Below are positions 23,462-26,178 of a stretch of DNA of 64,000 bases, piece after piece. The DNA comes from Chlorops oryzae (taxonomy: Eukaryota > Arthropoda > Insecta > Diptera > Chloropidae), in contig CM035807.1 of assembly GCA_020466095.1 (NCBI GenBank), positions 57,608,605 through 57,672,604 on the forward strand. The letters run 5' to 3'. How positions within the stretch are numbered: position 1 is the first letter of the stretch; each line of letters begins with the position of its first letter. The translations under genes were made by a program, and so were the position numbers. The notes below the pieces were generated by a model. It searched no databases and was not told where the DNA came from. It was given only the letters and a program-made list of their open reading frames with translations.

Positions 23462-26178
23462 GTCACAAGTGCTCGGAGGCAGGTGTTTTACCGGACCCAG
23501 CCAAGGTAGAATGCGTGAAAAACATCGCGCCACCCAAGACTGTAAAACAGTTACAATCAATTCTAGGATTGATTAATTATTACCGAAAATTTATACCTAA
23601 TGCCGCAAAAGTAGCATTGCCTTTAACAAAATTGCTTAGAAAGGACGTTAAATTTAAATGGGATACCGAATGCCAAGAGGCAATGAACCAGCTGAAAAAA
23701 GCTATAACCAACCCCCCGATCCTACAATATCCTGATTTTCAGAAAACTTTCATTCTCACAACCGATGCTAGCAATGAGGCGCTAGGAGCAGTCCTTTCCC
23801 AGGAGGAATCAGGACATGATCTTCCCATTTATTACGTCAGTAGAGCGCTTAGCGAGACAGAAAGACGTTATTCAACAACAGAGAAGGAGTTTCTGGCAAT
23901 AGTTTGGGCAGTAAAAAATTTCAGGACATATCTTTTGGGCAACCACTTCAAAATATACACAGACCATAAGCCCCTCAAGGGCATAGCAAATTTGAAAGAG
24001 CAGGATACAAGGCTAGGTCGTTTTCGTCTGAAACTGCTAGAATATGATTTTGAAATTTGCTATAAACCAGGGAAGAATAACTTAAACGCAGACGCCCTCA
24101 GCAGACTTCCTACACTCAAAGGTGAAGTATCAATCGTAACACGATCGAGAGCACTAAAGCAAGAAGAACCAACAGAACCAGCCATAGTAGAAATATTTAA
24201 TGGAAACGAAGAAAGTTCAGTAAATGTGGACACAGCGGTTTTCCTTACCGAGTCAAAAGAAATAGCAAAAGTATTAAAGGCGTTTCACGATACACCAATC
24301 GGAGGTCATAAGGGATTTTTAAAAACGTATTTCCGAATTAGGAGGCAGTTTAAATGGGAGGGCATGCAAAAACAAATAAAAAATTATGTCAACGCATGCA
24401 AACTCTGCCAACAGAACAAAAGCTCGAGAGCCGAAAGATTGCCAATGACCATAACGGACACTCCCCATAGGCCATTCGACAAAGTTTTTATGGACATAGT
24501 TGGACCACTCCCAGTCTCACCTAGAGGAAATAAGTACATCCTCACCTTCTTGGATGATTTTTCCAAATACTTTCTCTGTATTGCCATCCCTGATGCGGAA
24601 GCAACAACTATAGCAAGAGCATATTTTAACGAGATAATTTCAAAGTTTAATATTCCACGGACACTAGTAACGGACAACGGGACAAATTTCATGCCAAAAT
24701 TGTTTAACGAAGTTTGCAAAATTCTCGGAATAAAGAAGTCTCAAACTTCCCCGTACCACCCACAAGCCAACGGCGCTCTTGAACGGACTCACCGACCGCT
24801 TGCGGAATTCCTCCGAAATTTCGTCAAGGAGGATGGTACCAATTGGGATGAATGGCTGCACCACGCTATACACGTGCATAACAACACAGTCCATTCATCC
24901 ACAAAACAAACACCCTGCAGAATTCTTTTTGGCTTCGAATTTGAAATTCCATTAAATTTAAAACAAAAACCTGCACCCCTTTACAATCCAGACGATTACA
25001 GTAAAATTCTAAAGTATCAGATTCAAAGGAGCTATGAAATATCAAGAAATAACCAAAAGAACGCGAAGGCAAAGTCAAAAAAATATTACGATAAAACTAC
25101 GAAGGAAAGGCAGTTCAAGATAGGAGATAAGGTTTGGCTAAAAAATCAAACCAAAGAGCACAAATTTTCACCAGTGTGGCGAGGGCCGTATGAGGTAGTC
25201 GAGATTCCTTCCCCGACCAATGTGCGTTTACTGATAAAAGGGAAAAAGAAAACTTACCATAAAAACTTAGTTAAGATTCATAAACAAGAAATCTGCACAA
25301 TAGAATGTATAGTAGACCCCAAACAACCAAATACATCAGATATTTTAGAAGATGCAACCAATGTGAACGACATAGTCGAAGAATACGAAAAGCTGCCGAA
25401 GGTAAACAATGAAAATACAATTAGTCATTTTTTGAAAAATAAATCAAAAAACAGATTCTCAAACGTGAAGTGCTTCGATCATAGCCGAGTGAAGCTCAAA
25501 TCAACAAGCAAAAGGAGATCAGATTACATTCATGCCAACTATGTGAAGGGATTTCATTGTACACAAAAATACATTGCCACTCAAAAGCCGACGAAACAAA
25601 CAATTAATGACTTTTGGCATATGGTTTGGGACGAAAATTCTTTCGATATAATTATGTTCACAGAACCAAATAAAAAAGCAGAAAGTTGGCAATATTGGGG
25701 AAGAAGCATAAATGACATAGTTAAATGTGGAAATTTGCAAATTCGTACTTTAGAAACAATTACAGAAAATAATTACGTTCATAGTAAAATAGAATTGAGA
25801 AATTTAAACAATGATAAAATCCGAGTAGTATCGCATTGGCAGTTTTTAAGTTGGCCAGACGGGGGCACTACCAACCCCGCAGAGCTATTGAATTTCTGGA
25901 AAAAAGTGAAGCAATATAATAATACGTTCTCGACAATGATCATTCATTGTATGGCCGGCGTTGGACGAACCGGCACAATCATAGCATTAGATATAGCCAT
26001 CGACAGTTTAAACGCAGGTTTGAAACCAAATATTCCTAAGATAGTGGAAGAAATTCGTGAACAACGGGCTAATGCAGTAGGTAATAAAGACCAATACACA
26101 TTAATATACAGAGCGCTTTACCACTACAACAAGCAGGAGAACAAAGCAAAATATAGAAATATATTTTGGTTGGAATAA
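23462..26178 (+). pseudogene. pol: B1 Pol, C-terminal part: RNase H, integrase, tyrosine phosphatase
   Basis: Continues pol after the hAT element; the open part has an ATG-like entry only by chance. RNase H has LTTDASNEALGAVLSQ and IYTDHKPL. The integrase has the HHCC finger (GGHKGFLKTY...CKLCQQNK), FMDIVGPLP, LVTDNGTNF and SPYHPQANGALERTHR, then a C-terminal domain with KIGDKVWLKN. After a linker of about 60 residues comes an entire tyrosine phosphatase domain in the same frame (25411-26145). The gene ends at 26178 about 30 residues after the domain. No frameshift is seen in this half. Confidence 0.93.
25411..26145 (+). other. Protein tyrosine phosphatase domain at the Pol C-terminus
   Basis: Classical PTP domain, which removes phosphate from phosphotyrosine through a cysteine intermediate. 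Visible motifs in order: KNRFSNVKCFDHSRVKL (substrate-loop type), DYIHANYVKGF, YIATQKPT...INDFWHMVW, the WPD loop (Asp codon 25858-25860), the P-loop HCMAGVGRTG (Cys codon 25948-25950, Arg codon 25966-25968) and the Q-loop (Gln codon 26092-26094). All catalytic residues are kept. The domain is in frame with integrase, so it would be made as part of Pol unless cleaved off. Phosphatases of this class are known from baculoviruses and bracoviruses; fusion to a retroelement integrase is not something I know from described families. Confidence 0.93.

What the first reader, a model, noticed from the sequence alone, without database searches (positions are those of the whole stretch)
25411..26145. Tyrosine phosphatase fused to the Pol of an errantivirus-like element
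The frame passes from the integrase C-terminal domain straight into a complete classical PTP domain. The WPD Asp, HCxAGxGRTG Cys and Arg, and Q-loop Gln are all present. The same fusion is in B2 (Cys codon at 47952-47954, minus strand), a young copy with intact gag and pol. The linker has drifted between the copies, but I found only one residue change in the domain. Host-type PTPs are known in baculoviruses and bracoviruses, where they affect host signalling or behaviour; I know of no described retroelement family with one in Pol. It may have been captured from a host or a large DNA virus.
Basis: partly seen in the sequence, partly recalled or inferred. Interest (0 to 1): 0.95.

Follow-up and report, generated by a model that had tools for sequence, protein, structure and literature searches.

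The report
Retroelement family carrying a tyrosine phosphatase
In this animal genome a family of retrovirus-like mobile elements carries, fused to the end of its replication enzyme, a complete protein-tyrosine phosphatase of the kind cells use in signalling; it is kept intact across diverged subfamilies and in a distant environmental sequence, so it looks like a working part of the element and not an accident.

Summary
At 25411-26145 the Pol frame of an env-bearing Ty3/gypsy element runs from integrase through a short linker into a classical PTP domain (PF00102, E 3e-65). The young copy B (LTRs 750 bp, 1 mismatch) has open gag and RT-RNaseH-IN-PTP frames, though its env is deleted. It is no mis-assembly: of 70 PTP loci read in the same genome (30 best, 40 chosen by me) 65 have integrase upstream and 41 pass a full-length open-frame filter, in nine subfamilies counting the window's own. 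A 1789-aa metagenome protein (P0129) has the same architecture at 50% identity. Cys, Arg and the WPD Asp are kept in 44 of 44 rows. Between subfamilies synonymous sites are at or near saturation while PTP dN is 0.21-0.58: purifying selection, looser than on integrase. Element PTPs form one group apart from other PTPs (moderate support); two integrase lineages seem to have lost the domain. So: one old capture, later losses. Several subfamilies also carry a C48 (SUMO-protease-like) ORF. Best reading: a Gag-Pol-delivered phosphatase acting on host phosphotyrosine signalling; delivery and target are inferred. New variant of a known kind.

The parts
18070..32214 (+). Copy A of the element (broken): 5' LTR cut to 18070-18460, 3' LTR about 31457-32214, 4-bp duplication CTGG
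   Evidence: its flanks match an empty site at 35134-35660
23413..26178 (+). Copy A: open frame RNase H - integrase - linker - PTP
25411..26145 (+). Copy A: classical PTP domain
   Evidence: PF00102 E 3.2e-65; AlphaFold2 pLDDT 83.5, pTM 0.85; Foldseek TM (query) 0.82-0.89 to PTPs in the 50 rows shown
26414..27139 (-). Antisense open frame (241 codons) between PTP and env; possible gene
   Evidence: similar antisense frame in L079 (tblastn 30% over 141 aa, E 1.5e-7) and L072 (weak)
27570..29081 (+). Copy A: env, Baculo_F type
   Evidence: PF12259 E 3.2e-7
29420..30259 (+). Copy A: C48 (Ulp1/SENP-like) protease ORF
   Evidence: PF02902 E 3.1e-16; SENP2 E 1.5e-10
45024..55798 (-). Copy B of the element: LTRs 45024-45773 and 55049-55798 (750 bp, 1 mismatch), duplication GACC
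52493..54625 (-). Copy B: gag open frame with Cys/His knuckles (by eye)
52520..52526 (-). Copy B: GGGAAAC heptamer in the gag/pol overlap, in register for a -1 frameshift
   Evidence: read by eye
47745..52529 (-). Copy B: Pol open frame, RT-RNaseH-IN-PTP with a protease-like motif before RT (by eye)
47781..48464 (-). Copy B: PTP domain; Cys codon 47952-47954
46915..47365 (-). Copy B: remnant of the C48 ORF after deletion of env

Best explanation
A lineage of envelope-bearing Ty3/gypsy retroelements captured a classical cellular-type PTP once, fused it after the integrase C-terminus, and has kept it as a catalytic domain. Shown: the fusion, its presence in nine subfamilies of this genome and in a distant metagenome contig, intact catalytic residues, purifying selection, one grouping of the PTPs (moderate support). 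Inferred: it is made as the C-terminus of a Gag-Pol polyprotein by -1 frameshifting, so it is packaged and carried into the next cell, where it removes phosphate from host (or particle) phosphotyrosine proteins to favour entry, trafficking or survival. Its fast evolution and the nearby C48 protease ORF fit a module that acts on host signalling.
For: PTP E 3e-65; fold like solved PTPs; same architecture in P0129, 50% identity over 1514 columns; 65 of 70 loci read have integrase upstream, 41 of 70 loci plus A and B pass the full-length open-frame filter; Cys, Arg, Asp in 44 of 44 rows, these 43 plus P0129; 36 between-subfamily pairs: PTP dN 0.207-0.578; PTP dS infinite in 22 and 1.26-3.07 in 14, ratio 0.07-0.24 in those 14; element PTPs one group (84/87, SH-aLRT 84); two PTP-less integrase lineages nested among PTP-bearing ones; frameshift heptamer; C48 0.9-4.4 kb downstream of 18 listed PTPs.
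Against: No expression, activity or packaging data. Q-loop Gln is His or Leu in two subfamilies and unaligned in the three rows of a third (34 of 44 keep it). Within subfamilies PTP pN/pS reaches 0.75 (window family, 10 pairs) and 1.12 (F2, 3 pairs). PTP is dispensable for some relatives: L076-L078, L082 and L085 have none in the 1.7-kb stretches read. Support for one origin is moderate with long branches; P0129's best pairwise match is P0002, not the window's PTP. Only 1 of the 120 hits listed (of 1867), and none of the 120 listed (of 1717), is a Pol-PTP fusion; others may lie below the cut.
Confidence: 0.62

Rival explanations
1. The PTP fold is kept mainly as a binding module: it holds phosphotyrosine proteins or helps target integrase, as the chromodomain at the Pol C-terminus of chromoviruses may do, and catalysis is secondary.
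For: It sits where chromoviruses carry a chromodomain, at the Pol C-terminus (PMC12440569, passage); Q-loop Gln lost in two subfamilies.
Against: Nucleophile, Arg and WPD Asp kept in 44 of 44 rows; pure binding should not need the Asp.
Confidence: 0.2
2. The phosphatase acts on the element's own proteins (Gag, Env or integrase) to control assembly or uncoating, not on host signalling.
For: Being part of Pol it would lie next to Gag and integrase; one frame with Pol.
Against: PTP dN is 2.5 to 7.3 times integrase dN over the 36 subfamily pairs, more like a host-facing domain; no direct evidence either way.
Confidence: 0.15
3. A chance passenger: a transduced host exon with no function, spread because the elements are young.
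For: Copies A and B alone are too close to show selection; high within-family ratio in F2 and F5; PTP-less relatives exist.
Against: Open and catalytically complete across subfamilies whose synonymous sites are at or near saturation, and in P0129; 123 of 2205 possible point changes in the window's PTP make a stop.
Confidence: 0.02

Closest known systems
Insect errantiviruses / env-bearing gypsy elements (PMC13172572 and PMC12440569, passages only)
   Same: LTRs, gag-pol-env order, Baculo_F-type Env; 4-bp duplication (recalled for errantiviruses)
   Different: PTP at the end of Pol, C48 ORF after env, integrase with a GPY motif; RT tree not made
Chromoviruses (PMC12440569, passage)
   Same: extra domain appended at the Pol C-terminus
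   Different: a chromodomain there, an enzyme of the PTP family here
Baculovirus ptp (PMC3471939, passages)
   Same: captured phosphatase in an insect virus, associated with virions; activity needed for hyperactivity with AcMNPV, though another study is cited there in which it was not needed with BmNPV
   Different: separate gene of a DNA virus, not fused to a polymerase; that it is of the dual-specificity kind is recalled
Bracovirus PTP family (PMC5704228, passages; BFVD rows)
   Same: PTP fold in an insect-associated virus, amplified
   Different: 16-31% identity in the 12 rows named bracovirus or bracoviriform among the 50 shown; free-standing proteins there
dUTPase in the Pol of non-primate lentiviruses; vaccinia VH1 (both recalled, no call)
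   Same: extra enzyme in Pol; virion-borne phosphatase acting at entry
   Different: other enzyme; other virus kind and other phosphatase class

Membership tests
Classical PTP (PF00102) | whole-domain profile match | tested here: met
   E 3.2e-65, positions 1-233 of 234
Classical PTP (PF00102) | P-loop Cys and Arg, WPD Asp | tested here: met
   44 of 44 rows
Classical PTP (PF00102) | Q-loop Gln | tested here: met
   present in both window copies; 34 of 44 rows overall
Classical PTP (PF00102) | phosphatase activity | not testable with these tools
   needs protein
Ty3/gypsy (Metaviridae) LTR element | LTRs, Pol order PR-RT-RNaseH-IN, short target-site duplication | tested here: met
   RT, RNase H, IN in this order by Pfam; protease motif by eye in copy B, RVP profile in P0129; LTRs and 4-bp duplication
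Errantivirus | env related to baculovirus F | tested here: met
   PF12259 E 3.2e-7, 6.4e-8 in L072
Errantivirus | integrase without GPF/Y motif (PMC12440569) | tested here: not met
   WRGPYEV is present after the integrase core (by eye)
Errantivirus | RT inside the errantivirus clade | not tested
   no reference RT set was at hand
C48 (Ulp1/SENP) protease | profile match and His-Asp-Gln-Cys | tested here: met
   E 3.1e-16; H104, D119, Q162, C168 invariant in 4 of 4 rows, one of them lacking its N-terminus; that these four are the catalytic set is recalled

The most novel reading that the evidence does not exclude
This is a complex insect-type retrovirus lineage with its own kit against host signalling: a Gag-Pol-borne tyrosine phosphatase, a SUMO or ubiquitin-like protease behind env, and an antisense gene between them, with the phosphatase exchanged between lineages and now and then lost.
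Probability: 0.35. Interest if true: 0.93.

Novelty: new variant of a known kind. Interest (0 to 1): 0.88.

Why it matters
I know of no retroelement or retrovirus Pol with a signalling phosphatase, and the four text searches that paired phosphatase with retroelement terms listed none (listings, and passages of one paper). It suggests that retroelements acquire host-regulating enzymes as large DNA viruses do, gives a natural many-copy series of a PTP evolving inside a polyprotein, and makes testable whether endogenous retroviruses of this kind manage phosphotyrosine and SUMO signalling of the cells they enter.

Tried and rejected
Rejected: mis-assembly (many loci on several contigs and an independent metagenome contig). 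Not supported: recent capture from this genome's own PTPs; the five loci without integrase that I read (L001, L002, L055, L056, L059) fall outside the element group, but the genome's other PTPs were not examined. Not upheld: my first idea that the Thr in place of the Pro of WPDxGxP is a shared mark of the window and P0129; other subfamilies have Pro. The Gly after YW (0 of 261 non-element domains, 6 of which show no such motif) is shared by P0129 and most subfamilies but is Glu in F1 and Ser in F4. PTP exchange between lineages: integrase and PTP trees place L031 differently; integrase data reject the PTP placement (p 0.003), PTP data do not reject the integrase placement (p 0.14); groups chosen after seeing the trees: a hint only.

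Led nowhere: viral-contig scans, tRNA scan, NCBIfam (one row far under its cut-off). The host species is not identified; three contigs of 173, 118 and 97 Mb suggest a few large chromosomes, as in mosquitoes (inference, untested). Chary and Hayashi 2025, a set of 289 metazoan errantiviruses cited in PMC13172572 (passage), was not in the library and could already contain such elements.

Full report
Observation. The frame at 23413-26178 (+) carries RNase H, integrase and a full PTP. Copy B on the minus strand, 45024-55798, has 750-bp LTRs with one mismatch, a GACC duplication on both sides, an open gag frame and one open Pol frame from the gag overlap to the end of the PTP. A GGGAAAC heptamer lies in the gag/pol overlap in the register for a -1 frameshift (read by eye). 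Copy A has env (Baculo_F) and a C48 ORF downstream but a cut 5' LTR and an insertion in RT. Copy B lacks env and keeps a piece of the C48 ORF.

The domain. Sequence search of solved structures puts receptor PTPs first (LAR/PTPRF and PTPRA are the top three of 253 matches). A model (pLDDT 83.5, pTM 0.85) matches solved PTPs with query TM-scores of 0.82-0.89 in the fifty rows shown. Cys, Arg and Asp are in place; the window family has Phe for the usual Tyr of KNRY and Met after the Cys.

Independent occurrence. A search with the integrase tail plus PTP gave 1867 proteins; of the 120 listed the best, and the only Pol-PTP fusion, was P0129: 1789 aa on a 6783-base metagenome contig, with RT, RNase H, integrase and PTP, 50% identical over 1514 columns. 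By region: RT 73%, RNase H 70%, integrase core 55%, integrase C-terminus 59%, linker 18%, PTP 40%.

Own genome. PF00102 gave 151 matches (150 of 596 candidates scored, a lower bound); by hand count 31 listed rows, copy B among them, have open frames of 1500 aa or more without stops. I read 70 loci: the 30 best and 40 that I chose, with a lean to long frames, so the proportions are no census. 65 of 70 have integrase upstream on the same strand; five do not. 41 loci plus A and B pass a filter for full-length, open, in-frame integrase and PTP (43 of 72 rows). From the PTP tree I sorted these 43 into nine subfamilies; outside the window's own, integrase is 70-82% and PTP 38-51% identical to copy B.

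Selection. One member per subfamily, 36 pairs, Nei-Gojobori with Jukes-Cantor: PTP dS is infinite in 22 pairs and 1.26-3.07 in 14; PTP dN is 0.207-0.578; the ratio is 0.07-0.24 in those 14. For integrase it is 0.03-0.08 in its 14 finite pairs. Only 7 of 36 pairs are finite for both, so the ratios are rough, but they are far under 1. Within subfamilies, summed over non-independent pairs, PTP pN/pS is 0.14-1.12 and integrase 0.10-0.37; the window family has 0.75 and F2 1.12 for PTP. Between A and B alone nothing can be said. Cys, Arg and Asp are unchanged in 44 of 44 rows, Gln in 34.

History. In a tree of 28 PTPs (29 cluster representatives of 263 domains, one degenerate row, P0008, dropped) the window's PTP and P0129's are sisters at 84/87; with the 43 rows and the five host rows all 44 element PTPs form one group, SH-aLRT 84. 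Long branches are present, and P0129's best pairwise match is P0002, which with P0005 joins the element group at SH-aLRT 98. I also read 1.7 kb at the integrase end of ten integrase matches with long frames: five have a PTP, some of them broken, and five have none there. In the latter Pol ends 19 residues (L076-L078) or 11 residues (L082, L085) past the HKNLxK at the end of the integrase match; L082 and L085 have an open C48 ORF next. On an integrase tree rooted with P0129 four PTP-less rows (L086-L089) fall in two places among PTP-bearing lineages (0% of 200 bootstrap trees do with one change); the best tree that holds the PTP-bearing ones together is rejected (p 0.006; group named after reading the loci). 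One gain and at least two losses is the simplest account.

Neighbours. In 5 kb downstream of five copies: F2 (L072) has open env and C48 frames, F6 (L073) C48 without env, F9 (L075) an env remnant and a C48 frame cut at its start; F1 (L071) and F8 (L074) show neither. C48 is itself widespread (150 of 513 candidates scored); I found by eye 18 listed C48 matches 0.9-4.4 kb downstream of a listed PTP on the same strand, and did not count the rest. C48 active-site residues are invariant in 4 of 4 rows. An antisense frame lies between PTP and env in A (241 codons) and L072 (195); none of 500 shuffles of either stretch gave a frame so long. A like frame in L079 matches A's at E 1.5e-7; A against L072 is weak (2 of 1000 shuffles as good).

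Mechanism. Shown: one frame, catalytic residues, constraint. Inferred: Gag-Pol frameshift product, packaging, delivery with the particle, dephosphorylation of host proteins on entry. The analogy with virion-associated baculovirus PTP rests on passages of PMC3471939, which also cite a study where the activity was not needed. The C48 neighbour suggests a wider hold on host signalling.

Literature. Of nine searches four paired phosphatase with retroelement terms; their listings show no paper on a PTP in a retroelement Pol, and passages of PMC5704228 do not either. 'Phosphatase' does not occur in the main texts of PMC12992720, PMC12440569 and PMC13172572. Most subscription papers and the 2025 metazoan errantivirus set were not readable.

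Noticed in passing
29420-30259 (+): C48/SENP-like protease ORF behind env; related open ORFs in other subfamilies (L072, L073, L082), and at least 150 matches in the genome
   Followed up: partly
26414-27139 (-); L072:878-1462 (-); L079:1041-1640 (-): Long antisense open frame between PTP and env, similar in L079 (E 1.5e-7) and weakly in L072; no Pfam match in A or L072: possible antisense gene of the element
   Followed up: partly
392-12306 (-): Another Ty3/gypsy element with 2.4-kb repeats (392-2827 / 9875-12306, 99.0% identical) whose gag ORF 7618-9183 has a RING finger (PF13639 E 3.6e-8) before Retrotrans_gag
   Followed up: no
35134-35660: Paralogous empty site of copy A, giving its target-site duplication CTGG
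   Followed up: yes
L031 against L016/L034: Integrase and PTP trees disagree on L031: hint that PTP modules are exchanged
   Followed up: partly
25281-25410 (+): Integrase-PTP linker changes faster than both neighbours: 8 non-synonymous and 1 synonymous between A and B
   Followed up: no
37369-44548 (+): BEL/Pao element with DUF1759 parts and a 1413-aa Pol
   Followed up: no
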